64,000 nt of DNA. It comes from Ophiocordyceps camponoti-saundersi (nom. inval.) (lineage: Eukaryota > Ascomycota > Sordariomycetes > Hypocreales > Ophiocordycipitaceae). Shown one piece after another: positions 30,369 to 58,184 of this stretch. Location: contig PDHQ01000127.1 in the NCBI GenBank assembly GCA_003339415.1, positions 29,178 to 93,177 of the forward strand, written 5' to 3'. The notes under the pieces are model-generated. The model saw only the letters and a list, made by a program, of their open reading frames with translations, was not told where the DNA came from and made no database searches. The translations under genes and the position numbers were made by a program. Numbering within the stretch: the stretch's first letter is position 1; each line of letters opens with the position of its first letter.

Positions 30369-30384
30369 TAAGTATAGTATATAC

Positions 30385-30600: not shown

Positions 30601-30674
30601 CTACTAATATTCTTATAACTATTATAGATATTTATAGACGCCGCGAAATAAGTTATAAAAATTAGAAATATAAA

Positions 30675-31272: not shown

Positions 31273-31910
31273 TAATATAACGGCAGTAGTAGATATACTT
31301 AAGGAAAAATATAATTTAGCCTTTTCTAGTAAGCTATAAAAGGTATAAATAGCGCTTAATTAAATAGTAACTTAACTATTTCCTTATCTTAGGAGCTTCT
31401 AAGGATTAGAAGATAAAAAGCAGTTAAGATAAGATAAGGGCTATAACTAAGTATATAGCGTAAATTAGTTCTATCGAAAAGAGGAATATATTAAATAATA
31501 CTTAGCCCTCTAACCTTATATTTATAGCTATTTTTAAAGTTATATATTAAGTTAAGTTTTAGAGCAAACTTATAGTATTTTTTTTTTTAGCTAAAACCTT
31601 ATTAAATAGAATTATAACTTCGTTTTAAACTTTATACTTATTAGTAAGAATTACTAATTTAATTACCCGTTTCGAAATTTTAAGAGTTTATTTAAATAGT
31701 TATTCCTTTCTTTTAGCTTATTCCTTCTATTTTCGTATAGTAAATCGACTTCTTATTATTTTCCTTATAGGGAATTACTATCTAGCTTAACCCCGTATAG
31801 GAAGGGATACCGCCTTATATTAGTTAAAGATTTCGGTTACGTAAGAAGTTACGCATTCTAGATATCTACGAAGCTTACTTAAAGTATTATTCTCCCCGTA
31901 TAAAAGAAGC
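31273..31910 (+). repeat. Family M repeat, copy 4
   Basis: Begins with ACGGCAGTAGTAGATATAC near 31279, one of the best-preserved 5' ends, and follows copy 3 head-to-tail. The 3' end reads GTATTATTCTCCCC near 31890. Confidence 0.75.
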
Positions 31911-32168
31911 TTATTATAAATAAAAGTAATATAAGTAACTAAGAAGATATAATATAATAAAATAGGCTTATTTATTATATATTAAGAATAAAGGAATATT
32001 TAAAAGGCGTTTAAATAAAGATTTATTTTCTTTCTAAGTATTCTTATAATTACGAGGGTTTATTATATATATATTATATTTTCTATAATTACGAAGAAAG
32101 GAACTAGTTTAATATAGTTTAATAGCTAATAAGTATATAGAAATAGATTATAAGATAATATTCTTCTA
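31911..32168. other. Spacer between family M copies
   Basis: A+T-rich; no feature recognised. Confidence 0.4.
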
Positions 32169-32806
32169 TTATATATAGTTTAGCGGTAGTAATAGATACG
32201 CCTAAATAAAAATAAGCGTAAAACTTAGCTAGGGGATTTCTAGGGCTTATATAGGGTTTAATTAAATAGTTTCTAAACCTTTTTCTTTTCCTAAAAATAT
32301 CTAAGGATTAAGATACGAAAGGTAAATAATATAGGACTAGAGTTATTATTAAGTATATAGCTTAGATTAGTTTCCCTTAAAAAAGGAAGAAATTAAGTAA
32401 GTAATTAGCCTCTAACTTTATCTTTATAGCTTTTATAAAAATCGTATATCGTAAGTTAAGTCTTAAAGAGGGCCTTAAGATAAAAACTTTACTAAATAGA
32501 ATTATAACTTTATTTTTAACTTTATACTTTTATATTATAAATTACTAATTTAAATACTTACTTTAAGGTCCCTAATACTTAATTAAATTAGTCTTATTTT
32601 CCTTTCTCTTTCTTCTCTTATCTTTATATAGAAAACTAACTCCTTATTATTTTCTTTATAGAGAATTACTATCCGGCTTTTTCCCTTATAGCTAGAGACC
32701 CCCCCTTATATTAGTTAAAGCTTTTAGTTACCTAAAAAGTTACGCTATTTAAGTATTTACTAAGCTTACTTAAGGTATCCTTCTTCCCCCGCTAAAATAG
32801 CTTATA
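32169..32806 (+). repeat. Family M repeat, copy 5
   Basis: Full-length copy with the 5' end TTTAGCGGTAGTAATAGATA and the 3' end CTTCTTCCCCCGCTAAA. It forms the left edge of a larger duplicated segment whose partner starts with copy 7. Confidence 0.8.
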
Positions 32807-33894
32807 TTTAAAAAAGTATTATATATTATACTTATTTATATATAAAATTTTATATAAGATTATTATTATTATTATAACTAAGTAATATATTAATAATTAA
32901 AAATATTAGCTTATTTAACTATATTATTATATCTTATAAAGCTTTAAGTATTTACTTTTTAATTTTTAAAGAAATAGTAATAATAATAGCTATCTTTTTA
33001 CGTAAATTATTAAGCTTTTCCTAAAATATTTCCTAAAAGTTATTTATTAACCTAAATACCGGTTAGGGTAAAAGGAGAAAGATATTAATATTTATTATAA
33101 AAAGTATTAATTTTAAAATATAGGATTATAATTCCCTAATACTAAACTTAAGAGCTATTTAGTAAATATAAAAATATAAGTATACGTTATTAGATAAAAT
33201 ATCCTTACTAATATAAGCGAAAAGGTTATAGTCTTTATCGGCGAATATTTCGAAGCTAATATTATCCGATATAATATTATCCTAGCTAATAAGGGGAGAA
33301 TCGTAATATAGCTTATAATAATCGTAAATATAATACTTAGTATAAGTATATTAAAAAAGGTATTAAAATATAAAAAGATATTATTCTAAGAGGTTAAGTT
33401 AAATATAATAGGAAAGGGGTAATAACTTATAAATATTAAAATTAGTTTTATTTATCTATCCCCTTAATATACTTATAAGATAAGAGAAGTAATAAGAATA
33501 AAAAATATATAAGAGTAATAACGAGATAGGAGACGAATAAGAGAAAGAGAAATAATAAGTATATACTTAGGAATCGATATTCTCGAAATATAATATATTC
33601 CGATATAGATAAAGGTAATATAGGTAAAATACTTAGTTTTAATAAGTAATCGTAATATCTAAATATTTATAATTAAATAAAATATAGCGGGTATTAAGTA
33701 AATATAAGGTATTATTACGATTAATTTAAGATTTTATATAAGAGGACTAAGGTTATAGTTAGGCCGTTATTCTAATCTTTCGTTAGAGGTAAGGGAGGTA
33801 AATAAAAAAGAGAACGGGGAAATAGGGGCTAAAAAATAAAAAATATCGAATAAGATAGTTAAAAAGGGCAAAGATAGAAGAAAGATAAGATAAG

Positions 33895-34490
33895 TAAGAA
33901 AGGAGAAAAAGGAGAGGGGGAGTAAAATAATATTAATATATATAATAATAATACTAATATATAAAATATTAAGTAATAATAAGACTTTTTTTTTTTTTAT
34001 AAATATATTAGAGTTTAGGGAGTATATAAATAGATCTCCGGAATAATATTTAACGGCCGTAAAGGTTTAAGAGAGAGATAATAAGGTATATAAGGTAATA
34101 AGTTATAATTAATAGAATATAAAAGATTAAATTCTAAGCGGAGAGGAATAATATATAGTATTATAAATAATTAGTTTAAGGGGGCGGAGATAGAAGATAG
34201 GATAAGTAAAAGAGGAGGAGAAGGAGAGGGGGGTAAAATAGTATTTATATATATAATAATAGTGCTAATATATAAAAGATTAAGTAATAATAGGAGTTTT
34301 TTTTTTTTTTTCTTATAGATATATTAAAGTTTAAGAAGTATATAAATATATCTCCGGTATAATATCTAATAGCTATAAAAGTTTAAAAGAGAGATAGTAA
34401 GGTATATAAGGTAATAAGTTATAATTAGTAGAATATAAAAGATTAAATTCTAAGCGGAGAGGAATAATATATAGTATTATAAATAATTAA
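33895..34490 (+). repeat. Two direct ~305-bp repeats
   Basis: 33895-34185 and 34200-34490 match along their length. Each has a GGAGAGGGGG run, a T-run, ATCTCCGG(A/T)ATAATAT, then AAGAGAGATA(A/G)TAAGGTATA and GATTAAATTCTAAGCGGAGA. The second leads straight into the 77-79-bp array. Confidence 0.75.
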
Positions 34491-35038
34491 GCAGTTTATA
34501 ATTAGTAAAATATAAAAAAGATCGAATCTTAAGCGAAGAGGAATAATATATAATATTACGAATAATTAGATAATTTATAATTAGTAAAATATAAAAAAGA
34601 TTAAATCTTAGGTAAATAGGAATAATATATAATATTATAAATAATTAGATAGTTTATAATTAATAGAATATAAGAGATTAGATTCTAAGTAGATAAAAAT
34701 AATATATAATATTATAAATAATTAAGTAGTTTATAATTAGTAAGATATAGGAGAGATCGAATCCTAAGTAGAGAGAAAAGATATATAATATTATAAATAA
34801 TTAAATAGTTTATAATTAGTAGGATATAAGAAAGATTAAATCTTAGGTAAATAAGAATAATATATAATATTATAAATAATTAAATAGTTTATAATTAATA
34901 GAATATAAGAGATTAGATTTTAGGCGGATAGGAATAATATATAATATTATAAATAGTTAGACAGTTTATAATTAGTAAAAATAAGAAATCGGATCCTAGG
35001 CGGAGAGGAGAATATATAATATTAAAAAAGTATAAATA
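34418..35038 (+). repeat. 77-79-bp tandem array, eight units
   Basis: The motif (A/G)TTTATAATTA(G/A)TA starts units near 34418, 34494, 34573, 34652, 34729, 34808, 34887 and 34964, and a ninth degenerate start is at 35039. Steps are 75-79 bp. Each unit continues with GGATCGAATCCTAAG-like sequence in several RIP variants, then AATATATAATATTATAAATA. The array ends before a purine-rich stretch. Confidence 0.85.
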
Positions 35039-35340
35039 GTTTAGGTAAAAAAGGGTAAGTAAGTAATAAAGTAAGGGAATACGGAAGTTATAAGGGGATA
35101 GACTATAAGATAAGGGGCGTATAGTTAAGATTAAGAGAGAGAAGAGGTTTAGTATACTAGTAAAAAATAAGTATAAATATTTATATATAAAGGTCCTTAA
35201 AAGGGATAAGCTATAAAAAAAAAATAATAAGAGAAAAGAAATATAAGATATATAAACTATATAAGTATTAAAAAGATAAGGGGTTTAGTAAAGTATTTAA
35301 AACTTAAATATATATATATCTAAAGTTTGGTAAAGAGAAT

Positions 35341-35591
35341 AAGCTAGAAAGAGAAATAATAAAAAAAAAATAAAAGAATATACTTATATTAAAGAGTAAA
35401 ATTATATAATAAAGATAGGAGGTATTATATATTTAGGTACCGTAGCGCGTAATAAAGGGGATATATTAAGCGTGACCGTAATTTATAACTAAGATAAGGG
35501 GGTGTTTAAATATTAAAAAATAAGCTAGTTTATATATATAAGATATAAAAAAAAAGTTAATTATATACGGAGAGATTATAATAATACTTAA
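35341..35591. other. Purine-rich low-complexity DNA
   Basis: A and G dominate the plus strand. No frame or repeat family recognised beyond short A-runs. Confidence 0.4.
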
Positions 35592-35860
35592 GGGGCGTAA
35601 CTTCTTATATAATAATATCTATAATAGATATAGGGGTATCCCTAGCTATTAAAAATAGGCCGGATTATAATTATTTATAATAATTAGTTAAGAAGTTAAT
35701 TTTCTATATAAAAGCGGAAAAAAAAAGAAAATAGCTATTAGATTATTTAATTAAACTATCTAAATATCTAAAATAATATTAAAGCTAGTAATCCGAAATA
35801 TAAAAATATAAAATTTAAGGTATAAATATAATACTAGTTAATATTTTTTTTTTTTTTATA
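35592..35860 (-). repeat. Family M fragment, inverted (copy 6)
   Basis: The reverse complement of the family M 3' half: GGGGCGTAACTTCTTATATA near 35594 corresponds to the AAGTTACGCC terminus, and TTAATTAAACTATCTAAA near 35750 to the internal TTAATTAAATAG. It is the only clearly inverted copy and is truncated near a T-run. Confidence 0.6.
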
Positions 35861-36467
35861 GTAAGCGGTCTCTAAGACTCGCCTTATAATATATAACTTC
35901 TATAATAGCCGCGAAGAGAAGCTTAAAAGCTAAAGATTTACTATTTTCTTAATTTATAAAGAGGGGGGCAGACTATACTATATACTCCGATTATAACCGC
36001 TATTTTACCTTAGCTAGCTTTATAATATTAATTTATAAACTCTTAGAGATAAAGAAAACGTAAATATAAATTAATATAAAGCTATATAAGTTTATAATAA
36101 TATATTATCTTTATTTAGCGTTTATCTAAACGTTTACTTAATCCTTTTCTTTAAAGAAAACTAAAATATAATATATATTATTATTAGCTATAATATTACT
36201 AAGTCTGCGTAGATAGCTTAAAATATATAAGAATAATAAAGGCTATAAAAATAAGGAAACTATTTTAATATACTTATTAAAATCTAAAAAGGTTTTATAT
36301 TTTTATTTAAAGTTATTATTTTTTAATATATCTAAAATATCCGCGAAATAAGTATATATTATAATATATAGTTATATTATAATAACGGTTAATATTATAA
36401 TATTTTAAGATATATATATAAAGGAATATATTATAAGTTATAATATATATAATTAAATATTATTTTC
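35861..36467. other. A+T-rich DNA, no gene recognised
   Basis: Mixed sequence with a short less-altered patch near 35975-36010 (CAGACTATACTATATACTCC). No supported feature. Confidence 0.35.
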
Positions 36468-37083
36468 GCAGCGGCGATAAATATACTTAGGGAAAAAGGC
36501 GCGCTTACCTTAGTTAGGAAACCGCTAGGAGCTTATATAAGGTTTAATTAAATAGTCCCTTAACTTTTTTTCCTTTTCTTAAAAGCTATTAAAAGTTAAT
36601 ACGCAAAGGTGGCCGATTTAAAATAAGGGCGATTACTAAGTATATAATATAGATTAGTTTTCCCTCGAAAGAGGATAAATTAAGTAAGTAATTAGCCCCT
36701 AACTTTATTTTTATAGCTATTATAAAAGTTATATATTATAAGTTAAGTCTTAGAGAGGACTTATAGTAAAAACTCTACTAAATAAAATTATAACTTTATT
36801 TTAAACTTTATACTTTTATATTTTAAATTACTATTTTAGATACTTATTCTAAAGTCCTTATTACTTAATTAAATAGTTCTTATCTTTTTTCCTCTTTTTT
36901 CTCTTATTTTTATATAAAAATTTAACTTCTTATTATTTTCCCTATAGAGAATTACTATCCGGCTTATCTTTTTATAGCTAGAGATCCCCTCTTATATTAG
37001 TTAAAAACTTTAGTTACTTAAAAAGTTACGCCCCTTAAGTATTTACTATACTTATTTAAGGTATCCTTCTCCCCCTACTAAAT
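36468..37083 (+). repeat. Family M repeat, copy 7
   Basis: Full-length copy starting GCAGCGGCGATAAATATACT and ending CTTCTCCCCCTACTAAA. It heads the second copy of the segmental duplication. Confidence 0.8.
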
Positions 37084-38560
37084 TATATAATAAAATAATA
37101 ATTATTATAATAAAGTAAATAATTAATAACTAAGTATATTAAACTAAGTTAAAGCTTTATTATATAGTATAATTCTTAAGGTATTTGCCTTTTAATTTAT
37201 AAAGAAGTAATAATAATAGTAGCTATCTATTTACGTAAAGCTTCGAGCTTTAACTAATATATTTCCTAAATATTATCTATTAACTTAAATATTAAATAAG
37301 AGTTAGGGAGAAAAAGGTTTTTCCTTATAAAAAAAGATATTAGTCTTAAGGTATAGAATTAAAAATTAGTCGCGCTAAACTTAATAGCTAGTTAATAAAT
37401 ATAAAAATAAAGATATATATTATTTAATAAAATATCTTTATTAACGTAAGAGAAAGGGATATAATATTAATTAGTAAATATTTCCGAGATATTATTATCT
37501 AATAAAATATAATTATAATAGCTTAAAGGAGAATAGTAATAGAGTTAGTAATAGTTAATAGTATAATACTTAATATATATATATTAAAGAAAATACTAAA
37601 ATATAAAGAGATATTAGTTTAAGATATTAAGTTAGATATAATAAGGGGGATATAATACCTAATAAGGATAGGGGTTAGTTTTTTTATTACTTTTTTTAAT
37701 ATATATAAGGTATAAGGGAATAATAATAATATAAGTATATAAAAGAAAGAAATAAAAAGTAATATATACTTAAATATTAGTATTTCTAAAATAGAGTATA
37801 TTATTATATAAATAAAGATAGTATAAATAGAAAACTTAATCTTAATAAGTAATTAAGATATTTAAGTAATTTTTATTAAAAAAAATATATTAAGTACTTA
37901 ATAATTATAAGGCGTTATTATAATTAGTAAGAGATATTTTATAAAATAATTATAGATATTATTAGGACGCTATTTTCTAGCTAGTAAGGGTATAATAAGT
38001 AAGGAGAGGAGAAGAGGAGGAGAAGGATAAGATAGAGTAAGTAAGAGAAAAATAAAAGGAGAGTAGAATAAAAGGTAATATAAAAAATAATAATAGTAAT
38101 ATATAAGTAATTTAAGCTATTTAAAAAATATACTTTTTATATAGATATATAATAATATAATAAAGTTAAAAAATAAAAATTTAAGAGATTAGCTATAAAA
38201 GTTTAAGTAAGATAGTAAGGAGCGTAAGATAATAAGTTATAGTTAAAAAAAATATAAGATATTAATATTAGAATAGAGAGGAATTAAATATAGTATTAGG
38301 AAAGATTAGATAATTTAGGTAAAAAGGAATAGGTAGGTAATAAGTAAGGTAATACGAATATTATAAAAGAATAAACTATAAGATAAGTTAAGTAGGAGGA
38401 GTTTAGTAAATTAGTAAAATATAAATATTAAAACTAAAAAAACTTAAAGAGGATATAATAAGGGAAAAGGAAAATTAAAAAAAAAAGTATAAGTATATAT
38501 ATATATATAAGGATAAATTATATAAAAAAAGAGTAAATATATATATATATAAGAGAATAT
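37084..38560 (+). repeat. Segmental duplication, copy B
   Basis: Co-linear with 32807-35340 but without the ~305-bp duplication and with only one recognisable unit of the 77-79-bp repeat (about 38235-38330). The simpler structure suggests that the arrays expanded in copy A after the duplication, or contracted here. Confidence 0.65.
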
Positions 38561-38574
38561 ATATATTAGAGCGG

Positions 38575-39170
38575 TAATAGTTATACTTATACTTAAAGAA
38601 AATATATATAAGTTTAAGATAGGCGCCTTTTAGGGACTTATATAGCGCTTAATAAAATCCCTAAACTATTTTTTTTTTTCGTTTATAAGACCTTCTAAAG
38701 ATTAATATAAAAAGCGGTTAAAATAGGAAAGCGATTATTATAAACTAATTTACGGTAATAGCTAATATATAGAAAAGATAAAGTACGCGTTAATATTAGC
38801 TAAGGAGCTTTTAAGAGCTTATATAAAGTTAAATTAAATAGTATCTTAACGCCTCCGTCCCCTTAAAAGCCTCTAAGAACTAAAATATAAAAGGGGTTAA
38901 GATAAGATAGAAGCTATTAAAAAGTATATAGCGTAAATTAGTTTCTTTTAAAAAGAGGAAGAAATTAAAGAATAATTAGCCCTTAACCTTATCTTTATAG
39001 CTATTTTAAAAGTAATATATAATAAGTTAAGTCTTAAAAAGGACTTATAGTAAAGATTTTAGAAAAACGAAATTATAACTTTATTATAAATCTTATACTT
39101 TTATATTACCAATTACTAATTTAAATACTTATTCTAAAGTTTTTTTTTTATACTTAATTAAATAGTTTTT
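38575..39170 (+). repeat. Family M fragments, copies 8 and 9
   Basis: A 5' fragment (about 38575-38740) is followed by a longer copy (about 38750-39170) that contains AATTAGCCCTTAACCTTATC and TTAATTAAATAG but stops before the 3' terminus. Confidence 0.6.
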
Positions 39171-39595
39171 TTAAAGTATATAAAGTAGTTTAGTTTCCCT
39201 TAAGTAAGGAAGAAATTAAGTAAGTAATTAGCCTTAAAGCTTTTTAGATATATTATCGAAATTATATATTATAAATTAAGCTTTAAGTAAACTTATAATA
39301 AAAACTCTAGCAGATAGAATTATAGCTTTACTTTAAACTTTACTTTTTATATAGTAAATTACTATATTAAACGTTTACTATAAGACTTTAAAAACTTAAT
39401 TAAATTATTCCTAATATTATTCCTATAATTTCTCTTATTATTATATAGAAACTTAACTTTTAATAACTTTATTTATAAAAATTTACTATTTAGCTTATAG
39501 TTTTACCTGCTTAGAAGATATAGCTAAAAATTCCGCCTTAAGTTAGTTAAAAACTATAGTAATAAACCTCCTATACTAAAATAGTTAGTTTAATA
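39171..39595 (+). repeat. Family M fragment, copy 10
   Basis: Starts inside the element (GTAGTTTAGTTTCCCTTAAG) and continues into degenerate 3' sequence. It lies tail-to-internal against copy 9, consistent with insertion into or unequal exchange between copies. Confidence 0.55.
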
Positions 39596-39689
39596 TAAAA
39601 AGTTATAATATACGATAATATATAGTTTAATTTAATAACTATAATAATATTACTAAGTTTATAATAAAAAAATATATTAGTCTTAGCTA

Positions 39690-40060
39690 AGGAAGTATAA
39701 AAGGTTTATATAAGGTTTAATTAAATACTTTTTTAACTTTTTTTTTTTTTTCCTTTAAGGGCTTTTAGGGATTAGGATATAAAAGGTAATTAGGATAAGA
39801 TAGGGGCTATACTTAAGTATATAATATATATTAGTTTCCCTTAAGAGAAGAAAGAATTAAAAAAGATTTAGCTCTTAACCTTATTTTTATAAATATTATA
39901 AAAGTTATAAATCGTAAGTTAAGTTTTAGAGAAAACTTAGAGTAAAAACTTTACTAAACGGAATTATAATATTATTTTAAACCTTACCCCTTTTCGCTAA
40001 AAGCTACTAATTTAAGTAATTATTTTAAAATACTAAAAGTTTAATATAGCGGTTTATATC
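39690..40060 (+). repeat. Family M fragment, copy 11
   Basis: Includes CTTAGCTAAGGAAGT, GGTTTAATTAAATAC, a T-run and AGTTTCCCTTAAGAGAAGAA; truncated 3' of the TTAAACCTTACC block. Confidence 0.6.
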
Positions 40061-40570
40061 TTCTATTATTTTATTTCTCTTATTTTTAGCTATAAATATA
40101 GTATTTCTTTTATATAGTATAAGATAATATATAGTTATATAATAAATAAATATTTTAAGTAATAATAATAATTATTTACTTAAATACTAAGTATATCTTA
40201 AAACTTAAGATTAATAGCTTTAAGGTATAGAATATAAAAGTTAGAGAAAAAGTAAGTAATAAACTATAAATAAAGTTTATAGAAAATAAGTTAAAGTTAT
40301 TTAAATAGGAGGTTTAAAATTATAGATTAGAATTAAATTAGGTATATATAGTATTAAAAGGTATCGGACAATTTTAACTATAAACCGAGAAGTAATAAGT
40401 TATATAGTTATACTTAATAATATATAAGATTTTAAATTATAGCTCGCGTTAAATATTTAAGTTCTCGGCACTTATATAACTAAGCTAGTAGCTTAAGTAG
40501 CTAGATAGCGTAGCTTAGATTTTTTATTATTATACTTACTAACTATATTATACTTATTTGCTACCTTTTA
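40061..40570. other. A+T-rich lead-in to the repeat-encoding relic
   Basis: No confident feature. If the relic gene at 40571-41374 once had an amino-terminal part or promoter, it lies here, but no signal peptide or start codon is readable; ATG would survive RIP only rarely (ATG to ATA). Confidence 0.35.
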
Positions 40571-41374
40571 TAATAAAAGCCCTCTTATAATAATTATTAT
40601 ATAGTAGAAATTTAAGACTATCGCTTACGAGCTTTAAAGATAATAATAGTAAAAACGATACTTACTAACTAGCGTAGGGCAGAAGATAGAGCTATAAATA
40701 ATTTATAAGGGGAGGATATAGTAATAATACTAATAAAAGAGAAGATTAAAATTAAAAAAAACGAAATTATAATAATAACTATAAAGAATAAGGTTAATAC
40801 GCTTAAGCTAAAGATAATAGCGGTTATAAAAACTATATATTTTAAACTAAAAAATAAGTTTATAGTTAAGAAAAACGAAGGCGGGATTATAATTACGAAA
40901 AATAAAGTTAGCACGCTTAAGCTAGAGATTATAGCGGCTATAAATATTATATATTCTAATATAAAGGAAGAGTCCGGAGTCGTAAAGGATAAACTTACGA
41001 TATAAATTATAAAGATCCTAGTTAATACTTATAAAGCTAAGACTTTAATAGTTAAAAAAAGGAAATCTTCTAAACTAAATAATAAGTTAGTAGTTATAGA
41101 GGAAAAAACCGCTATTATAATAAAAAAGAACCTAGTTAGTAGGTTTAAGGCTAAGACCCCTAAAGTTATAATAATAAAACTTTCTAAACTAAGTAAAAGG
41201 TTAATAGTTATAAGAAATAAAGCCGCGGTCCCGAGGGAGAAATATAAACTAGAAAAGCCTAAGGCCTAGACTTTAGGGGTCTTAAAAATAATACTTACTA
41301 AATCTATAAAAACTAAGATTTTAGCTTATTTAGCTTCTAAATATATGCCCTTATATCTAAAAGGATAGAAATAA
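40571..41374 (+). pseudogene. Relic gene encoding tandem 38-residue repeats, unknown function
   Basis: One plus-strand frame stays open far better than its surroundings. From 40685 to 41365 (227 codons) there are only three stops (40706, 41003, 41267), all TAA/TAG. The region is six units of exactly 114 bp: 40685, 40799, 40913, 41027, 41141 and 41255. Anchors are ACGCTTAAGCTA at 40799 and 40913, and GCTAAGAC(T/C) or its derivative at 41036, 41150 and 41264. Conserved residues are K-x-K-T near the unit start, S-K-L in the middle and VI-x-x-K after it; the first two junctions share KN(E)..KNKV. The frame ends at TAG 41366 / TAA 41372. Lys is abundant; many Leu/Ile codons could be former Pro/Thr, so the original may have been Lys/Pro/Thr-rich. 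I do not recognise the protein. Candidates are a host repeat protein or a transposon-carried gene. The open frame on the opposite strand at 40669-40914 is its shadow. Confidence 0.65.
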
Positions 41375-41585
41375 GAGATATATAATTCGTTATAGATAGC
41401 TTATAAAGTATAGCTTAACGATTATTTACTTTCCTTTTATTTTTTTACTTATTCTTTCCCTTTTATCTATTTTATATATAATAGCTATAATAGCTTTATA
41501 ATCCTTTATTATTTTCTTTCCTTATTTCTTAATACTCTTTCCTTATTATATATATAATAGTAAGATTAAGATTATTACGGTAATA
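41375..41585. other. Spacer
   Basis: Pyrimidine-rich plus strand (many CTTT runs); no feature recognised. Confidence 0.4.
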
Positions 41586-41765
41586 GTTTAGTAGCGATAG
41601 CTAAAATACTTAAGGAAAAAAAAAAATTAGCGTTACCCTTACTTAAGGAGCTATAAGGGGCTAATATAAAGTTTATTTAAATAGTTACTTAATAGCTCTC
41701 TTCTTATAAGGGCTTCTAAGGATTAAGCTATAAAAATAGTTAAAATAAGATATTTTAATAATATA
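41586..41765 (+). repeat. Family M fragment, copy 12 (5' end only)
   Basis: Starts TAGCGATAGCTAAAATACTT and runs through GGGCTTCTAAGGATTAAG before losing similarity. Confidence 0.6.
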
Positions 41766-41957
41766 TATAAGGTAAGATATTACTTATATAATTTAGCATT
41801 TCTTTTTTATAATATATATATATTAAAAATAAGAATTATAGTAACTAATAGTAGTAGCGAGGGGTAGGAGGCGCTTAATAAAAAAGAAATATATTATATA
41901 AAATAAGATAATAAGTAAAAAGAGAGAGGAAGGATAAAATAAAGTTAATATTATAAG
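41766..41957. other. Spacer
   Basis: A+T-rich, purine-biased towards its end; nothing recognised. Confidence 0.4.
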
Positions 41958-43700
41958 TATAATAGGATAGATATTATATTAATAAACTATACTAAGTTCC
42001 GGGCTATTAGCTTAATAGTATAGGTAGGAGGGGCTATTAAAAAAGATTTAATATTAGAAGGAGATAAGCGGCGAGGCGGATTTATTATAAACTCGTAATC
42101 TTATCGTTTATTATAGAAGTTATTAATATACCGCGCGCGATTATATCTAACGCGATATAATATATCCTTAATAATATAAGCGAGGAGATTAGTATATATA
42201 TCTTTACTTTTTTTAATAAAGGGTAAGATAGCGTTATCGATAATAGTAAGAATAGTAAATAATATAGCTTTTTTAATATTATATTTCTTACGAAGCTTTA
42301 TAAGTATTAAGGTAAAAAGTAAAAGAGGAGAGGTATAAGATATATTTATCGTATTATAAAGGGAGGGTAAAAAGGCGTAAAATATTAAATTAATTAGGTT
42401 ACTTAAGTTCGGGGGAGTAAGAGAAAGTTTATAATTTTTAGCTATACTTATAAGCGTAATAAATAATATATACGTAATAAGGGAAAATATAAAATAAAAT
42501 TAGAATATTTATAGATTTTTATATTATAAAAAGCGGAGATAATATAAGGGAGGACTTTTACTTTTTTTTTTATTTTAAAAAAAGAGAAGAGAATCGAAAA
42601 ACTTATCGGAAAATATAAAACGCTAAAAAATAGTTAATTATTAAAATAAAATATTATTAGAAGAGTAATATATAACTTATATATAGGAACGCGAGAAAAG
42701 TTTAAATAAACTTCGGATATATTTTTTTTTATTAAAAAAGGTATAACTTTATTAAAAAACTTTTATATAAATAGAAGTTAATATATAATTTATTAAAAAA
42801 AATAATAGTCTTATACGCGTAATATATTTAGGGATATTAAGGGGATTAAGATAATCTTACTTTTTTTATAATTATAAGTTATTTTATTAAAGTATAATAA
42901 TAAGGGTTTTAAAGCGGCCTTACTACTTAGTTTAAAAATCCTAAGATAAACCGTTATTTTAAAAAGCGGTTACTTTTAATAAAATAATATTAAAATATAA
43001 ATTAATATTATAAGTAAAAAAGTATAAGAGATAAAGGATTTAGCTTTATAGTTAAATAATATTAGTAAGCTACTTTTAAAGTATATTAGGCATACTTAGA
43101 GTTATAGTAAAAAGGGCGATAGTTATATTTTAATATAGATAGGTATTACTTTTCGATTTCGGGTAATATATCCTTAAAGAGAGCCTTCTTAAGCGCTAAA
43201 AAGTCTAGCTAAGAGGTTAAAATATATATTTTAAAGTAAAGTTATAATTTAGAACTAATAATTAAGGCGCTTAAGTATATATTATACGCGTTTAAAGTTA
43301 ATAGTATTAGAATATTAAAAACGAGTTTATTTAGAAAGATAAAAATAGAAATATTAAGATATACTTTATCGATATTATATAAGATAAAAAAGGGGGGGAG
43401 GGAAGAATTTCGCTAAAGCTACTATTAGTAATATATTTTTTATAATTAGTTATAACTTATAAAAGAGTAAAATTACTACGCAGCTTTAAGTATAAACTAA
43501 CTATTATTTTATTAGCTAAGTTATTATTTAAAGAGGTAATTATTTTATAAAGCGTAAGAAAATAAGTTATATTTAGAGATATAATAAGCTTTTTAGCTTA
43601 AAAGAAGCTTATAATCTTATAACTTAAACTAGGTTTATTCTCCGCTTATAATCTTATAAGAGTTATTTAAAACTTAGTTAGCAGGTAATATTTTTTTTTC
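41958..43700 (-). pseudogene. Minus-strand coding relic with a 132-codon stop-free core, unknown function
   Basis: On the minus strand 42499-42104 is a continuous 132-codon frame without any stop, unusual in such A+T-rich DNA. It has no ATG, so start-based searches miss it. It reads hydrophobic/basic stretches such as SLTPPNLSNLINLIFYAFLP, KKAILFTILTIIDNAILPF and INPPRRLSPSNIKSFLIAPP after one TAA at 42101-42103. Upstream to about 43700 the same strand gives further coding-like stretches separated by TAA/TAG, for example EIEK(stop)YLSILKYNYRPFYYNSKYA near 43180, in which Tyr may stand for former Cys or His. The Tyr-rich (ex Cys/His) pattern might reflect a zinc-finger-bearing fungal protein of mobile DNA, but I cannot name a family. 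A frameshift near 43400 is likely. Confidence 0.5.
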
Positions 43701-44019
43701 TAGTTATTTTAATACTATTAAGCTTAAAATTAAAGGAGCTTATTTTTATTAAGCTAATATTTTTAATCTTTTTTACTATTAGTCTTAATAAGGTAATTAA
43801 AAGTAAGTTTAAAGTATATATTAACTAGAAATATAATATAGCGTTTATAACTAAATTATTATTTTCTTTATTAAGTTTAAGTATATATATATTAGGTTTT
43901 ATTAGTAAAATATAGTAATTAGAGAATAGTTTAAGTATAAAAAGATTAAGCTAATTATACTATTAATATAAATAAAGATATAACGTTATATTATTAAGAT
44001 ATTTTATATATAGAGAGTT
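43701..44019. other. A+T-rich DNA upstream of the minus-strand relic
   Basis: Possibly still part of the relic (Lys/Ile-rich minus-strand frame), but not supportable. Confidence 0.3.
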
Positions 44020-44625
44020 TAGTAGCGGTAGTAGATATACTAAAGAAAAAAACTACGCGTTAGCCTTAGCTTAGGAGCTAATAAGGGCTTATAAGACTCT
44101 AATTAAATACTTTTATTAAATCTTTCTTTTCTTAAAAGCTTCTAAGGATTAGAAGAAGAAAAGTAATTAAGATAAGATATAAGCTATTATAAAGTATATA
44201 ATATAGTTAGTTTCCCTCTAATAAGGAAGGAATTAAGTAAGAATTAACCTTAACTTTATTTTTATAAATATCTTAAAGTTATAATATATAAGTTAAGTTT
44301 TAAAAAGAACTTAAGGTAAAAACTCTAGTAAATAAAATTATAACTTTTTTTAAACTTTAAACTTTTTATAATAAGTTACTAATTTAAGTAATTATTTTAA
44401 AATATTAAAAGTTTAATTAAGTAGTTCCCTTCTTCCTTTCTTTTATTTCTTTTATTTTTATATATAAAATTAAGTTATTATCGTTTTTTTAATAGATAAT
44501 TACTATTTAGCTTACTACTTTATAGTAAGAAATCCCCCTTATATTAATTAAAAATATAAGTTACTTAGGAAGTTACGCTTAGTAAGTATTTACTATACTC
44601 GCTTAAGGTATTTTATAACTTTATT
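44020..44625 (+). repeat. Family M repeat, copy 13
   Basis: Starts TTTAGTAGCGGTAGTAGATA, the best 5' terminus in the window, and ends GTATTTACTATACTCGCTTA near 44605 before degrading. Confidence 0.78.
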
Positions 44626-44913
44626 ATACTCTTTCTTTTTATAATAATATATAATATTAATCTATAAATAATATTATATTATATTCAATATATTAAATAT
44701 ATTATAAAAGCTAGTATTATAATTATTAAATTATTTATATATTTTTTATATATTTATCCTATTATTAAAAATATAAAAGAAAAATAAATAATAATTTAAT
44801 ATATTTATTTATTTTCTTTTTAAAAGAGAGACTAAGTAACTAAACTAATAATCCTATTTTTTCTATATACTAAAAAATAGTGTTTAGAACCCGGAACTTA
44901 ATATATATAATAG
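44626..44913. other. A+T-rich DNA abutting the telomeric array
   Basis: No gene. The last 40 bases (TAGTGTTTAGAACCCGGAAC) keep less-altered sequence directly before the telomeric units. Confidence 0.4.
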
Positions 44914-44949
44914 CTAACCCTAACCCTAACCCTAACCCTAACCCTAACC
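44914..44949 (+). repeat. Internal telomeric array (CCCTAA)n
   Basis: CTAA followed by five perfect CCCTAA units and CC. In this orientation the C-rich strand reads left to right, as at the left end of a chromosome, so the sequence to the right would be the subtelomere. It sits well inside the window, with normal RIP-altered DNA on the left. The perfect repeats show that it has not itself been mutated, although CCCTAA contains no CpA and is a poor RIP target. Confidence 0.9.
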
Positions 44950-45040
44950 GCCTTCGGCGCCCTCCTAGGGGGTGCCTGCGGCAGGCCTAACCTTAACCCT
45001 AACCTGCCTCCGGCGGCCCTCTTAGGGGGCGCCTGCGGCG
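44950..45040 (+). repeat. GC-rich duplicated unit with interspersed telomeric repeats
   Basis: Two related ~38-bp GC-rich units begin near 44950 and 45005, each with GCC(T/C)(T/C)CGGCG, then CCCTC(C/T)TAGGGGG, then GCCTGCGGC. They are separated by a degenerate telomeric stretch, CCTAACCTTAACCCTAACC (44986-45003). Both can fold locally (CGCC..GGCG; CCCTCCTAGGGGG). CpA and TpG survive here, unlike nearly everywhere else in the window. The block ends abruptly at GCGAGTAATAAAG. Confidence 0.85.
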
Positions 45041-45084
45041 AGTAATAAAGCTATTAGCGGTATTCGTTAAGCTTTTAAGATTAT

Positions 45085-45723
45085 ATATAAGTAAAATTAT
45101 ACTTTAGCGGCGATAATAGTTAAGCTAAAAGAAAATAAATACGAAGCTAGGATAAAATATTATTAAGAACTTATCTTAAGTAAAATTAAATAGTTTTTAA
45201 AACTTTTCTTTTTTCTTAAAAGTTTTTAAAAATAAGAACTATAAAAAGCGCTTAAAATAAGGGAGCGGTTATAACTAAGTATATAATATAGTTTAGTTTC
45301 CCTTAAGAGAGGAAAAACTAAGTAAGAATTAGCTATTAAACTTATCTTTATAGCTATCTTAAAAGTTATATATAGTAAGTAAAGTTTTAAAGAAGACTTA
45401 TAGTAAAAACTCTACTAAATAGAATTATAACTTTATTTTAAATTTTATATTTTTATATTATATATTATTAATTTTAAAGTTTTTTTTAAGGGTTCCGAGG
45501 ACTTAATTAAATAGTTTTTATTTTTATTATCTTAAGTTTCTTTTATTTTTATATAAGAAACTAACTTCTTATTATTTTCCTTATCGAAACTTATTATCTT
45601 ATTTAGCTTATTTCCTATAGCTAGAGACCCCCCCCCCCCCCCCCCCCCTTATATTAGTTAAAGATAATAGTAACCTTAGAGGAAGCTACGCCTTATAAGT
45701 ATATACTACGCTCGCTTAGGGTG
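45085..45723 (+). repeat. Family M repeat, copy 14 (left part, cut by the gap)
   Basis: From TTATACTTTAGCGGCGATAA (starting about 45087) to GCTCGCTTAGGGTG just before the Ns. It contains a 21-C run at 45628-45648 where copy 2 has AGATCCCCCC. The missing 3' terminus reappears after the gap as C-run plus GCTAAAG (45784-45808). Confidence 0.8.
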
Positions 45724-45733
45724 NNNNNNNNNN
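45724..45733. other. Assembly gap (10 N)
   Basis: Ten Ns fall inside family M copy 14. In other copies the bases between CTTAGGGTG and GCTAAA are only about a dozen (TCCTTCTTCCCC), so the real gap is probably very short apart from C-run expansion. Confidence 0.9.
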
Positions 45734-45783
45734 TATATTTGTGTTTTTGTTTTTTTGTTTTTTGTTGTAGGGGGGGGGGGGGG
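45734..45783. other. Probable artefact flank: T/G-rich segment plus G14
   Basis: 45734-45769 is a T-rich string with several GTTTTT and TTGTTG runs, containing TpG at a density unlike the rest of the window, followed by G14 (45770-45783) immediately facing C19 (45784-45802). This looks like a failed read end or gap-fill at a homopolymer rather than native sequence. Confidence 0.6.
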
Positions 45784-45810
45784 CCCCCCCCCCCCCCCCC
45801 CCGCTAAAGT

Positions 45811-47100
45811 AATAAGGGGATTTCGATAGCAAGCTCGCTCGAAAAGGTTAAAATAATAAGCTATTATAATAAAGTATTTACCTCCCTTTCTATATATATT
45901 AAATTAACTTTCTTAGGCCCTTTTAGCTCTCTCTAGCCTCTATTTAGCTAAGTAATACTAATTAATTAGATTTATTAAATTAATTAAATTAGCTTAAACG
46001 ATACTTTTTAACGCTTATAACCTTAACTTACTTATATAGTTTATAGGGGCTAGTAAACTTATATAATCTTACTTTCTTAAAACTATCTTCCTTATTAGGG
46101 GCCTTATATATATATATAAGCAGGGGTGCTTATTACTCCCGCTAAGGTAGCTTTTATCTTTTTTTTTTTTTACTAATTTATTAATAAAGAAATATTACCC
46201 GGATACCTATTATCTATTACGCGCGAAGGCTTTCTGCTAGCTAATAGTCTAATAAGACTTTATTTATCGTTATTAAGTTAAATTAAGTATAACTATTCTA
46301 CTACTTTAAGGTATATATTATATTTTTCTAAAATCTATAAAGTAGGAACCTACTAATATTATATTTTAACCGGATTTCCCTAAAAATCTAATATATTTTA
46401 TAACGGACTTATATAATAGAATTACCCGGAAAAATATATAGGGAATTAGAAATAACTAGGAAACGTAACCGCGTCTTTATTAGGATTTTACTACGCCCTC
46501 TCCCGTCCCTATAAGTATATATTTATTTATATTTAACTAAGATTTTACTAATAAAAATTTCCCTCCTTTCTATACCTTTTTACTTAGCTTCGATTTTTTT
46601 TTTAAAACTATTATTTACTTAATATATATATACTATAAGGCTAATAAGACTATCCTAAGCTTATAATTTACTAATAAGTAACTAATAAAAGTATACTAAC
46701 TTTTATATTAACGCGGAGACGGAAAAGGCTTTATATATAACTTAGATTATAACTTTATTTTAAAACGTATATTAAAAGCGTATAACGAGACCTTTTATTA
46801 ACTAAGGAGACTTATATAAGAGAAATATAACTAGGGAAAGATTAGTATCTATTTATAAATAATACCGGAAAACGATAATAAACTCCTTTTCTAAAACTCT
46901 AACTATGCTAAATACGCTAAAGAAGTAGCGTGCTAAGATAAGGTAACTATAAGTATAGATTCTTTATCTTAAAGAATAAGTAAACTATACCTTAAATATT
47001 AAGGCTAGCAATATACGCTATAAAGGATCGGCTATTTTTAGAAATAATAGGGGAACTTTAAAACTAAGTAGTAAGGCCGCTAATAAACCTCCTAAACGTA
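45811..47100. other. RIP-altered region, possible start of a coding relic
   Basis: Comparatively C-rich plus strand with many TAA/TAG-broken frames. From about 46690 a plus-strand frame grows more coherent and leads into the repeat unit pair at 47126. No family is recognised in the first kilobase. Confidence 0.35.
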
Positions 47101-47520
47101 AAATATAAGTAGTTATAAAAAACCTATAATATAACTTAAGTAGGCCGCGTTATACTTATAATAATATTAAAACCTTTTATAAATAAAGGAGTAACTTTAA
47201 TAGCTTATTAATATATAACTAATTTTACTTAATATATAAGCTATTCTTATAATATAACTTAAGCGGGCTATATTATACTTATAATAATATTAAGACCTCT
47301 TATAAATAGAGGAGTAACTTTAATAGCTTATTAATATATAACTAATTTTATTTAGTATATAAGCTATTCCGAAGCTATAAGTCTACCTGCGAATATTATC
47401 TTAATAATTCTTATAAGACTTTACTACTTTTCTTTAGCTTAAGGTACTTATAAAAAATAAAAAACTTATATTAATATACTAAGAGGGCTAAGCTTAGAGC
47501 GATAAGAAAAAGGTAATATA
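46690..47520 (+). pseudogene. Coding relic with Tyr-rich 41-residue repeats (zinc-finger-like?)
   Basis: In one plus-strand frame each 123-bp unit reads YTYNNIKTFYK, a stop, RSNFNSLLIYN, a stop, FYLIYKLF or close. Downstream are SYKSTCEYYLNNSYKTLLLF and a basic tail with KRAKLRAIRKR. RIP turns both Cys (TGY) and His (CAY) codons into Tyr (TAY), so the spacing of Tyr, Phe and Leu could be an eroded C2H2-type finger. That is inference: no intact Cys/His pair is left in the units. The relic might belong to a transposon or a regulator. Confidence 0.35.
47126..47372 (+). repeat. Two tandem 123-bp units, in frame (41 codons)
   Basis: ATAACTTAAG begins units at 47131 and 47254, exactly 123 bp apart, and both end in TATAAGCTATTC. 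Differences between units are mostly C/T or G/A. Since 123 is a multiple of three, the duplication keeps reading frame. Confidence 0.85.
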
Positions 47521-48159
47521 TTAAGATAATAGCTTTTATTTTTATTATAACGCGTTTAAATACCGCTTACCGCTAGCTAAGATAACTTAGTTTTAGGAAA
47601 AAAGCTAAACTATTATAAGCTTATTAATAGTTATAAAGTTATTACGCGTAATATAAATAGTAGGAAGATTATCTACTATTAATAATTAAGTTTAGGTTAC
47701 TTATATAATTTTACTATTTATATACTTTTACTTTTTATAAAACTAAAATAAACGCTAATCTCCTTATTAGTAGTTATTTCGTAAAGTAAGTAATAAGGCG
47801 CCTTAGCGCCGAGCTTATCTATATTTACCTTATCCTTATTACTAATTTCTAAAGCCTCTTAGTAAGTTAGGTACGTAAATAGTAAATTATTAAGTTAGTT
47901 ATTAGCAGATAATACTTTTTTAAGAAATCTATTAAGCGACAGATTACCTATAAAACCTCGTTATTTACTTTTTCTAAATAACTAAGAGAAAGTTACTACT
48001 TAATTATATTATCTAGAAAATAGAGTAGCGAGATAATTTACCTACCTTAGCTAAGCACTCGCGCTCGATTCGGCTACCTAATAAACTATTACTAAATATA
48101 AATATAAAAAGGGTAATATTAAGTAAAGACTTTATAGCGAAATAGGATAATATAGTTTA
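47521..48159. other. RIP-altered DNA, no gene recognised
   Basis: Plus-strand frames are broken throughout. Slightly higher C+G than average; no repeat identified. Confidence 0.35.
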
Positions 48160-48690
48160 GCTATAGCGGTAGAAATACTTAAGAAATAAACACGCGTTAG
48201 CCTTAGCTAAAGGGCTATTAGTAGCTTAGAAAATAATTAATTAAATAGTTTCTTAAACTTTTTCTTCTCCTAAAAGCTTCTAAAAATTAAAATATAAAAA
48301 GTAATTAAGATAAGATAAGGGCTATTATAAAGTATATAGTATAAATTAGTTTCCCTTAAAAGAGGAAGTAATTAAGTAAAAATTAGCACTTAATATTATT
48401 TTTATAGCTATCTTAAAAGTTATATATCGTAAGTTAAAACTTAGAGAGAACTTATAATAAAAACTTTACTAAACGGAATTATAACTTTATCTTAAATTTT
48501 ATACTTTTATATTATAAATTACTACTTTAAATATTTATTTTAAAATTTTAAGCTTTAAATTAAATAGTTCTTACCCTTTTCTATCTTATCCCTCCTATAT
48601 TTTTATAGAAAACTAGCTACTTATTATTTTCCTTATAGAGAATTATTATCTAGCTTACCCCCCCCCCCCCCCCCTTATTAAAATAGTAAA
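48160..48690 (+). repeat. Family M repeat, copy 15
   Basis: Starts AGCTATAGCGGTAGAAATAC and is cut short at a C17 run (48658-48674) in place of the C-containing GGCTTACCCCTTATAGC region; the 3' terminus is missing. Confidence 0.75.
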
Positions 48691-48929
48691 ATAATAGTAA
48701 GATAAATGCGAATATAAGATCCTCGAACGCTTTAGGAGGAGAGAGGACTTTATATAACTAGCGAAAGGAAAGGAGCTAACCCTAACTTACTAATATTATT
48801 AAGGAATCGACGAGAGTATAACGATAACGATAAGCTATAGCTATCCTTTATAGAGGCTAAATAATAGCTATTAACGGTTAAATTCCTAAAGCTAAATTTA
48901 CTAACTACTAACTTTAATATAATTATTAT
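48691..48929. other. Spacer with less-altered sequence
   Basis: Contains AACGATAACGATAAGC and an AGGAGGAGAGAGGAC purine run; no feature supported. Confidence 0.35.
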
Positions 48930-51310
48930 CTTTTTTTTACGCTATAATCTTACCTTATAATACTAATATTAAGATAAGGGGGGTAAGGACTATAAGGTTA
49001 AACTAAAAAAAGATTTCGTAATCTCTAAAATTAAAGATTTATTTTAATTAATTAGATTCTAGCTTTTAAGGAATAAGATAGAATAAGAAGTTTACGTTTA
49101 TTAAGAAGTATACGATTTTTAAGCTAGCGGTTAAGTTTAGGTTATAAGTATAAAAAAGTTCTTTTAGCTACTTTTGCTAGAAAAGCTTATTCCTAATAAT
49201 ATATAAGCGTCTACTTAGCAGATTAAACTATATTAGTCCTTAGTTAACCCCCTTAGCTACGCGAAGCTTATTACTTTTAGTTTAAATCTTTTTTTTTTAA
49301 TTATTAGAAAGCTATATATTTATTTATATAATCTTTTAGATAAGTATATATTAGTAATATATTAAGCGCTAATCTTCCTCTATTAGTCTTAATAATAAAG
49401 TTTAATATTTAGCGGGGATATATAAAATCTATACCTTTATACGCGGAACGCTTTAATAATACCGCTTTTATAAACTAATAAGATAGGAAAAGTATATTTA
49501 GCTATATAATTAAGCTCCTTAATATTATAATTTAATATAAATTAGGAGATAAGTAACTATTATAATAAGTAATACCGAAGTAAAACTACTTATACTTACT
49601 TTTATTATAAAAAAAATAAACGCTTTTTATTATATTAGTAATAAACTTAATATTATTCTTTTAGCCTTTTTAGAAGTTTTTTATAATAATATATAAATAA
49701 TATACTTACTTATAAAGGAAATATTAAAGCTATTAATTAAGATATAATATTTTAATATCTATTAGTATTAGTTACGATATAATATTTAAGTAAATTATAT
49801 AAAGATTACTTAGATATAAACTTCTGCGAAAGTTAGAGATTATTTTATAAAACCTTTTTAAGGATAATTATTTAAGAAGTTCTAAAACGAACTTAGATTT
49901 AAGATAAATTTACTTAATACGCTAGTTATTTATATAATTCCCCTTTATTATTATAAAGTTTACTTTATTTACTATTTTATATTATTATTATTATAGTTAC
50001 TATTTTTTATATTTATTACTTAATATTATCTTTTCTATATAAAGGACTAGTTTATTTCCTTACTAACGTCTCTTCTCTATATTTACCTAAGCTTACTAAG
50101 CCTAAGTTAAAGGATATAAGTACGGTATTAAAGCTAGCTAGCGCGTAGCGTGCTTTAGATATTATAATAATAAGAGAACTATTTGCCTATTTTTATTTTA
50201 AATATTTATAGTATTTTTAAGTTTAATAATCTTACGGTCCTTTATAATATTATCGTTATTAGCGATCGTAAACCCCCCTAACTTTATTAACTTAGCCGTT
50301 TTAATTAGACGCTATAATAAGTAATAATAACCTTATTAAGCTTAAATATATAAGCTATAAGCACTATATTAGAAACTAAGTAATAAAATATATAACTTAA
50401 AAGGATAAGCGCGTATATATAAATAAGAGTATTTTTCGTATAAAGTCGCGTTCTCGGCACTACGGCTTTAAACTAAAAGCGAGCGAAAGTATTTATTATC
50501 TCTTAAAACTTAATTTACTATAAGTTATAATACGGCCGTAATTTTAGCTTAAAGTATTACGCTAACCGCGGGCATAGTAAGCGTATAACGCTTTATATCC
50601 TAAAAAGGTATTTTATATTATTTTTAAATATTAGGAATATAGGGAATTTAAGGTAGAGATTTACGTTAATAGATAAGGTTATTATTATAACTAGTATTTA
50701 AGGATAAGCTATCGGAACCTTAATAAGGCGATATCTTCCGTATATACTTAGGTTTTAAGGACTTATAATATCTATTTTAGAAAAGGAAGAAATAAAAGAA
50801 TAATTAAAAAACTACTTACGAAAGAAGAAAAAGAGGATAAAGGAAGAAGAAAAAGGAAAAGAGAGAGAGGAAGAGAAGAGGGCATTTTATACTATACTTA
50901 GATAACTTAGCTAGCTTTACTAATTTAATAAGTATAGAAGATATATTCTTATAGTCTTTTCCTATAAGTTTTCTCTTAAAAGTTTTAATAATCTTATCTT
51001 ATAATCTTTAAAGTTATTTTTAAAGCTTATTAGATATTTTTAAATAAGCTTATAAGCTTAAGGGGGGTATATTACGTATATATATATAAGAAAATACCTC
51101 CTTTATATTATAAAAATAGGTATTAGCCTTATAAATAAGGGCTAAAAACTTAAAAAAGAAAATAGTCGCTATTAAAATAGTTAGAGGCAGATATCGGATA
51201 GGTAAAACTAAAGCGTTATTATATATATTTCCTAATTATAAAAAAAAATATAAGTTCTAACTATATTTTTAAATAAGACTTAAAATACTATATTATTTCT
51301 AAATACTTTA
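48930..51310 (+). mobile_element. Family X transposon, second copy (partial)
   Basis: Co-linear with 18200-20780. The GCTATAATCTTACCTTATAA region near 48940 corresponds to 18238, the GTAAAACTACTTA region at 49579 to 18838, AAGGATAATTATTTAAG at 49860 to 19123, and the GA-rich plus GGGCATTTTATAC block at 50780-50900 to 20085-20205. It ends in ATATTTTTAAATAAGACTTA near 51265, like 20729 and 52710. Too decayed to read a protein. Confidence 0.55.
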
Positions 51311-51369
51311 ACTTATATCCTTATAATAGTTATAAGCTTAATCTGCCTTATTTAATCCGAGTTATATTT

Positions 51370-52770: not shown

Positions 52771-52794
52771 ATATAATATACCCGTATTAGTAAA

Positions 52795-53385: not shown

Positions 53386-53399
53386 AAGCCCTCTTAAGA

Positions 53400-56010: not shown

Positions 56011-56069
56011 TTAAAAAATAATATTACGATAATTATTCTTTAGCTTACTTAGCTTTAAGGGCGGTATTA

Positions 56070-58181: not shown

Positions 58182-58184
<3 letters not shown>

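What the first reader, a model, noticed from the sequence alone, without database searches (positions are those of the whole stretch)
40571..41374. RIP-killed gene made of exact 38-residue tandem repeats
Six consecutive 114-bp units keep perfect length and frame; only three stops in 227 codons, all TAA/TAG, in a window where other frames stop every few codons. Conserved K-x-K-T, S-K-L and V-I-x-x-K positions repeat with exact period. I know of no named family matching it. An expandable repeat protein in an AT-rich, RIP-prone block resembles the setting of fast-evolving secreted or surface proteins in plant-associated fungi, but nothing here shows secretion.
Basis: partly seen in the sequence, partly recalled or inferred. 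Interest (0 to 1): 0.75.

Follow-up and report, generated by a model that had tools for sequence, protein, structure and literature searches.

The report
Mutated repeat gene in fungal duplications
This is most likely the wreck of a small gene for a repetitive, charged protein, carried inside a large piece of DNA that a fungus copied about twenty times and then mutated heavily, as such fungi usually do to duplicated DNA; the way it was broken is ordinary, but what the protein once did is unknown.

Summary
The 114-bp periodicity is real but less exact than described: four clear units, 58-81% alike in the least mutated copy, plus part-units at each end. The + frame is unusually open. Codon statistics favour the + strand, imperfectly.

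The genome's CCT-theta protein is 100% identical to that of Ophiocordyceps camponoti-saundersi, not a plant-associated fungus. The stretch occurs in 20 places at 78-89% identity to the window copy, inside a much longer duplicated block. Of 287 variable columns, 280 are pure transitions: repeat-induced point mutation (RIP) of a duplicated block. Three copies lack exactly 114 bp; one has a 1-bp gap. At three codons with a stop in some copies, 32 of 33 non-stop copies differ only by C>T/G>A; one further stop is not of that type.

No relative was found in Pfam, PDB or a 5.8-billion-protein set. Verdict: an orphan member of a known kind, a RIP-inactivated duplicated gene. Interest is modest.

The parts
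40571..41374 (+). Degenerate reading frame (268 codons with stops) of the repeat gene; the best-supported stretch is the 233 codons at 40673-41371
40670..40783 (+). Upstream part-unit (nt identity 0.27-0.47 to the other units in copy C547)
40784..40897 (+). 114-bp unit 1 (38 codons)
40898..41011 (+). 114-bp unit 2; in-frame stop at 41003-41005 (codon 145), present in 17 of 20 copies
41012..41125 (+). 114-bp unit 3
41126..41239 (+). 114-bp unit 4
41240..41353 (+). Downstream part-unit (nt identity 0.27-0.49 to the other units in C547); stop at 41267-41269 (codon 233) in all 20 copies
40799..40912 (+). The 114 bp missing as a block from copies C246, C214 and C546
   Evidence: columns 229-342
40672..41265 (-). 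Opposite frame, 198 codons, one stop in this copy and none in 9 of 16 gapless copies; judged a mirror of the + frame
41993..42496 (-). Neighbouring reading frame, convergent with the repeat gene; open over 170 aa in copy C547; 21 close copies (this one included) and 37 weaker matches
29511..56125 (.). Stretch over which the fetched copies match at about 85-91%, with gaps and breaks; limited by what was fetched, the true ends were not found

Best explanation
A once protein-coding + strand gene, about 230-270 codons long, for a lysine/threonine/glutamate/alanine-rich protein, probably disordered, built around four to five tandem 38-residue units. It sits as a passenger in a long DNA block present in at least 20 places of the genome of Ophiocordyceps camponoti-saundersi. 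RIP, the fungal defence that mutates C to T in duplicated DNA, then mutated every copy seen, swapping residues (towards K, I, L, N, Y) and making stops. Unit number changed by a whole unit, probably through unequal recombination. Shown: periodicity, copy number, nearly transition-only divergence, unit loss, stops of RIP type, no detectable relatives. Inferred: that it was translated, that it was the + strand, that it was disordered. The function of the living protein is not known; the most likely guess is a low-complexity passenger protein of the block.
For: Period and open frame. Phase depletion of TA/CA/TG: reached in 0 of 1000 shuffles of the whole stretch. Twenty copies; 280 of 287 variable columns are pure transitions; of these 156 have a CpA/TpG-type and 116 a CpT/ApG-type neighbour in most mutated copies. 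Indels: one 114-bp loss shared by three copies, one 1-bp gap in one. Stops in 6, 17 and 4 of 20 copies at codons 46, 145 and 266, where 32 of 33 non-stop copies differ only by C>T/G>A. GC in copy C547: 0.435 in the kilobase holding most of the gene, about 0.30 in the 3 kb before and 0.37-0.39 after. Codon model from 6 of 10 chaperonin loci: + frame best of six in 16 of 16 gapless copies. Sense beat its third-position mirror in 6 of 6 intact genes, 2 of 2 RIP-mutated domains, and 16 of 16 simulated windows at each of two strengths, the windows being cut from the training genes. Frame excess of the C547 gene, 0.264, tops the 124 overlapping control windows outside the copia-type stretch (maximum 0.200). 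Composition of C547: 35% charged, 3% aromatic, no Cys.
Against: Stops at codons 34 and 233 are present in all 20 copies, and at codons 1, 2 and 268 in all 16 gapless ones, so no copy shows an intact frame. One stop, at codon 172 in one copy, is not explained by C>T/G>A against any of the other 19. No homologue in any search. The - frame is as open and its units score highest in BLOSUM terms in 4 of 4 copies tested; in C547 it has 1.61 per residue, another + frame 1.35 and this frame 1.28. Transversions between units 1-4 fall 22/55/50 on + codon positions 1/2/3 (summed), not the usual excess at position 3. The codon test ranked a wrong antisense frame first over the RIP-mutated reverse transcriptase, and the true frame first in only 13 of 16 windows at the stronger simulation; three windows in the copia-type stretch exceed the gene's frame excess. 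Four of ten chaperonin loci were dropped from the model because their longest ORF looked antisense. If one unit alone is the effective sample, phase depletion is only about 1 in 100.
Confidence: 0.72

Rival explanations
1. The coding strand is the - strand: a hydrophobic, serine-rich repeat protein (198 codons), in the same direction as the neighbouring reading frame.
For: No stop in 9 of 16 gapless copies; highest unit-to-unit BLOSUM score of six frames in 4 of 4 copies tested; fewest transversions at its second codon position; same strand as the neighbour.
Against: Mirror antisense frames of six intact genes of this genome also have only 6-11 stops in 354-555 codons. Codon model: the + frame beats this frame in 16 of 16 gapless copies, and a true frame never lost to its mirror in the controls. 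Extreme composition: 78% pyrimidine at codon position 2 in C547.
Confidence: 0.13
2. It was never a gene: a short minisatellite of 114-bp units that by chance has a phased lack of TA/CA/TG, amplified with the block.
For: A 114-bp period makes frames repeat automatically; a single shuffled unit matches the observed depletion in 20 of 2000 (C547) or 13 of 2000 (C30) shuffles. No homologue. Stops at codons 34 and 233 in all 20 copies.
Against: Apart from one 123-bp match on C124, the DNA and protein searches of this genome found the array only in these 20 places, never as a long satellite. The open frame continues through the weakly repeated ends. GC and codon-frame signal.
Confidence: 0.12
3. 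It is an ORF of a transposon that makes up the block, for instance a gag-like protein.
For: The block is multi-copy and holds a copia-type reverse transcriptase at about window 54.5-55.2 kb.
Against: No Pfam domain at E 0.01 or better in six frames over 8 kb around the gene in the least mutated copy. The copia-type domain is about 13 kb away, between its own candidate LTRs. Matching stretches are far longer than an ordinary retrotransposon.
Confidence: 0.08

Closest known systems
RIP-degraded duplicated genes in repeat families (Hane and Oliver 2010, PMC3017866; start of abstract and passages seen)
   Same: Multi-copy repeat families that turned out to hold RIP-mutated genes, for example X3X3R8 and the subtelomeric X26 of Stagonospora nodorum
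   Different: There relatives gave the genes a name (helicases, ubiquitin-conjugating enzyme); here no relative was found and the gene carries in-frame tandem units
NWD gene family and its RIP-killed pseudogenes NWDp1 and NWDp2 of Podospora anserina (PMC1805685; passages seen, abstract among them)
   Same: Tandem-repeat protein genes with changes in unit number; two members killed by RIP
   Different: Those are NACHT plus WD40 proteins with units up to identical, whose repeats largely escaped the RIP seen around them; here the units are 38 residues, divergent, match no Pfam family, and are as RIP-mutated as their flanks
AT-rich RIP-mutated compartments of Ophiocordyceps genomes (O. robertsii and O. 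sinensis, PMC10153710; passages seen)
   Same: Long AT-rich, gene-poor stretches attributed to RIP-mutated repeats
   Different: Our window is from another species and shows one 804-bp module in 20 copies

Membership tests
RIP-mutated repeat family | Copies differ by C>T/G>A transitions in preferred dinucleotide contexts | tested here: met
   280 of 287 variable columns are pure transitions; 156 with a CpA/TpG-type and 116 with a CpT/ApG-type neighbour, 8 others; neighbours were read in mutated copies and may themselves be mutated
RIP-mutated repeat family | RIP indices high, CpA/TpG depleted | tested here: met
   (CA+TG)/(AC+GT) 0.01-0.14 and TA/AT 1.30-1.70 in 32 of 32 window segments of 2 kb
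RIP-mutated repeat family | Multi-copy duplicated DNA in the same genome | tested here: met
   20 places
Protein-coding gene (dead) | Open frame beyond chance, with codon signal | tested here: met
   0 of 1000 shuffles; + frame best of six in 16 of 16 gapless copies; caveats: single unit 20 of 2000, codon test wrong on one RIP-mutated control
Protein-coding gene (dead) | Intact homologue elsewhere | tested here: not met
   No hit at E 0.01 or better among 4868 candidates from 5.8 billion proteins; the same database returned Ophiocordyceps proteins for a control.
NACHT-WD40 repeat genes | WD40 or NACHT domain | tested here: not met
   Three unrelated matches below cut-off for one of three translations, none for the other two
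Non-coding satellite | Long arrays at many places with free indels | tested here: not met
   Found only in the 20 places, apart from one 123-bp match on C124; indels are one 114-bp loss in three copies and one 1-bp gap in one
Secreted or surface protein | Signal peptide | not testable with these tools
   The 5' end is interrupted by stops (codons 1 and 2 in 16 of 16 gapless copies, codon 34 in 20 of 20); the start codon is uncertain
Retrotransposon ORF (gag) | Linked RT, integrase or gag domain | tested here: not met
   No Pfam hit at E 0.01 in six frames over 8 kb of copy C547

The most novel reading that the evidence does not exclude
The block is an undescribed large multi-copy element of Ophiocordyceps, carrying its own convergent gene pair: a fast-evolving 38-residue repeat protein of no known family and a partner gene that also has many distant relatives in a second repeat block. 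The repeat protein would be a working part of that element rather than a random passenger.
Probability: 0.12. Interest if true: 0.5.

Novelty: new member of a known kind. Interest (0 to 1): 0.22.

Why it matters
It suggests that part of the RIP-mutated repeat DNA of an Ophiocordyceps descends from genes and not only from ordinary transposons. It gives a clean case, 20 copies at different stages of mutation, for measuring RIP context in this genus. It also shows two traps: RIP creates lysine and isoleucine motifs, and a period divisible by three makes frames look open on both strands.

Tried and rejected
Tandem Repeats Finder did not report the array; autocorrelation did. Rfam at gathering scores and the tRNA scan of the window: no hits. 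Pfam with two + frame translations and one - frame translation: three sub-threshold unrelated matches for one, none for the others. Pfam over ten open stretches of the block at E 0.1: none. PDB with the profile and with the C-terminal tail piece: none. Protein database with the five-copy alignment and with the neighbouring frame: none at E 0.01.

A resemblance of the tail (APGYVPPYLRGR) to a YVPPHLR-type motif of Ded1/DDX3 helicases is recalled only; one search gave no support, so it is not used.

Codon-position transversions were meant to prove coding but did not give the classical pattern. Unit-to-unit BLOSUM scores favoured the - frame and are reported as evidence against. My first codon model included ORFs that look antisense; one search keeps six of the ten loci, chosen by eye. 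Three copies were first aligned in the wrong orientation, corrected. The line around the copia-type stretch was drawn.

I considered a subtelomeric origin because of the short CCCTAA array inside the block. The three contigs with long arrays (C343, C623, C696) do not appear among the block's hits (of which the last four scored only part of their candidates), so it is not claimed.

Full report
What is there. The window lies in contig C30 of a 45.7-Mb genome in 733 contigs. All of it is heavily mutated in the manner of RIP: GC 0.17-0.31, (CA+TG)/(AC+GT) 0.01-0.14 and TA/AT 1.30-1.70 in 32 segments of 2 kb. At 40571-41374 the + strand frame has few stops (5 in 225 codons from 40700) where the other two + frames have 47 and 33. 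Identity at a lag of 114 is 0.522 against a mean of 0.326, with echoes at 228 and 342; in 500-bp windows it reaches 0.604, against at most 0.446 outside 39.9-41.5 kb.

How exact the repeats are. In the least mutated copy (C547, GC 0.474, the highest of 20) four units are 0.58-0.81 identical in nucleotides and 0.32-0.61 in residues. The units on either side are 0.27-0.49 identical in nucleotides to the rest. So there are four clear units and part-units at each end, not six exact ones, and Tandem Repeats Finder reports no array here.

Both strands. The opposite frame that shares third codon positions is as open: 3 stops in 224 codons in the window, and over 198 codons no stop in 9 of the 16 gapless copies and one TAA in each of the other seven. 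This is one fact seen twice: a stop in that frame needs TA at codon positions 1-2 of the + frame, exactly what the + frame lacks (7, 40 and 38 TA/CA/TG dinucleotides in the three phases of C547). Intact genes of this genome show the same mirror effect, 6-11 stops in 354-555 antisense codons. A codon model from six intact chaperonin ORFs (of ten loci fetched; four were dropped because their longest ORF looked antisense) puts the + frame first of six in 16 of 16 gapless copies. The true frame beat its mirror in 6 of 6 intact genes, in 2 of 2 RIP-mutated domains, and in 16 of 16 simulated windows at each of two strengths, though these windows come from the genes that trained the model. In the frame-excess test the C547 gene (0.264) tops the 124 overlapping control windows outside the copia-type stretch (maximum 0.200); three windows inside that stretch exceed it.

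Limits of the strand call. The same model ranked a wrong antisense frame first over the RIP-mutated reverse transcriptase, and the true frame first in only 13 of 16 windows at the stronger simulation. Unit-to-unit BLOSUM scores favour the - frame in 4 of 4 copies tested. I hold the + strand at roughly 85% given that it is coding at all; this is a judgement.

Chance. Against 1000 dinucleotide shuffles of the 702 bases none was as phase-depleted, in C547 or in C30. But a period divisible by three makes units non-independent, and a single shuffled unit matches in 20 of 2000 (C547) or 13 of 2000 (C30). Coding is likely, not proven.

Copies. The 804 bases are found in 20 places, the window included; the other 19 are 78-89% identical to it, and there is one 123-bp match on C124. 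In a 20-copy alignment of 804 columns, 517 are invariant, 280 are pure C/T or A/G and 7 hold a transversion. Judged by the commonest neighbour in the mutated copies, 156 of the 280 are of CpA/TpG type, 116 of CpT/ApG type and 8 other; some neighbours may themselves be mutated, so the CpT share is uncertain. Sixteen copies have no gap, one (C32) has a 1-bp gap, and three (C246, C214, C546) lack the same 114 bp. Those three share one transversion with C30, C105, C97 and C525, which fits a single loss, though I built no tree.

Stops. A stop is present in 20, 6, 17, 20 and 4 of 20 copies at codons 34, 46, 145, 233 and 266. At the three variable ones, 14 of 14, 3 of 3 and 15 of 16 non-stop copies differ only by C>T or G>A. 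A further stop, at codon 172 in one copy, is not of that type against any of the other 19; C546 alone has a transversion in that codon (column 514), so it is probably C546's. The first two codons and the last are stops in all 16 gapless copies. No copy has an uninterrupted frame.

The block. Flanking stretches match at similar levels: window 41375-44900 in 20 other places at 84-91%, and 37500-40570, whole or in part, mostly at 88-92% (40 of about 665 candidates were scored in each). Fetched copies are collinear, with breaks, from about 29.5 to 56 kb. C97 also matches at 22.5-26.5 and 57-61 kb. Other parts have 37 matches, itself included (22500-26500), or 31 of 2.3 kb or more (57000-61000), both lower bounds. 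So the block is a mosaic and its ends were not found. A convergent neighbour frame at 41993-42496 (-) has 21 close copies, itself included, and 37 weaker matches, one of them at window 15354-15677; it too has no Pfam or database relative. Six-frame Pfam scans with X at stops found nothing at E 0.01 in 8 kb around the gene and a copia-type reverse transcriptase further along, at about window 54.5-55.2 kb.

Organism. The CCT-theta protein of this genome is 100% identical over 494 residues to one of Ophiocordyceps camponoti-saundersi; the next is O. polyrhachis-furcata at 96%. The species is placed in the Hypocreales. That it infects ants is recalled, and fits its name and its mention in a paper on zombie-ant fungi (PMC10173673, search listing only). 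The plant-associated setting does not hold. One search also shows that the protein database holds Ophiocordyceps proteins, so the empty result for the repeat protein carries some weight, limited by RIP damage in the query.

Reading. A gene for a charged, K/T/E/A-rich repeat protein (35% charged, 3% aromatic, no Cys in C547) was carried in a long block, multiplied, and killed by RIP. Duplication of the block is enough to explain RIP; the internal repeats need no role, since the flanks are as mutated. What the protein did is open. Published cases of RIP-mutated genes in repeat families (PMC3017866, passages) and of RIP-killed repeat-protein genes (PMC1805685, passages) make this a known kind. 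Passages of two Ophiocordyceps genome papers (PMC4625970, PMC5624889) showed nothing on such a repeat. I found no paper on it in the searches; none of them could search by sequence.

Noticed in passing
window 52826-56758: Probable copia-type LTR retrotransposon: RVT_2 (PF07727) and SH3_retrovirus (PF25597) in copy C324, mapping to about 53.4-55.3 kb (+), with candidate LTRs at 52826-53359 and 56219-56758 (79% alike, direct).
   Followed up: partly
window 44914-45039: Short interstitial telomere-like array (CTAACC x6) running into a GC-rich 57-bp repeat, inside the duplicated block; CCCTAACCCTAA is in 9 of the 28 loci held, from nine block copies.
   Followed up: partly
window 3029, 7387, 30755, 31283, 32061, 36357, 38785, 39677, 43971, 45184, 48150 and others: A family of dispersed repeats, mostly 300-800 bp and mostly in direct orientation, more than ten copies in the window, about 67-81% alike; identity unknown.
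   Followed up: no
window 41993-42496 and 15354-15677 (-): Neighbouring reading frame with 21 close copies and 37 weaker matches (36-47% aa) elsewhere; no Pfam or database relative.
   Followed up: partly
window 34419-35043 and 47125-47408: 79-bp tandem repeat (about 8 copies) and 123-bp tandem repeat (about 2 copies), not examined further.
   Followed up: no
20-copy alignment of 40571-41374: RIP in this species may use CpT/ApG contexts (116 columns) nearly as often as CpA/TpG (156), with only 8 columns of other type; neighbours were read in mutated copies, so the CpT share is uncertain.
   Followed up: partly
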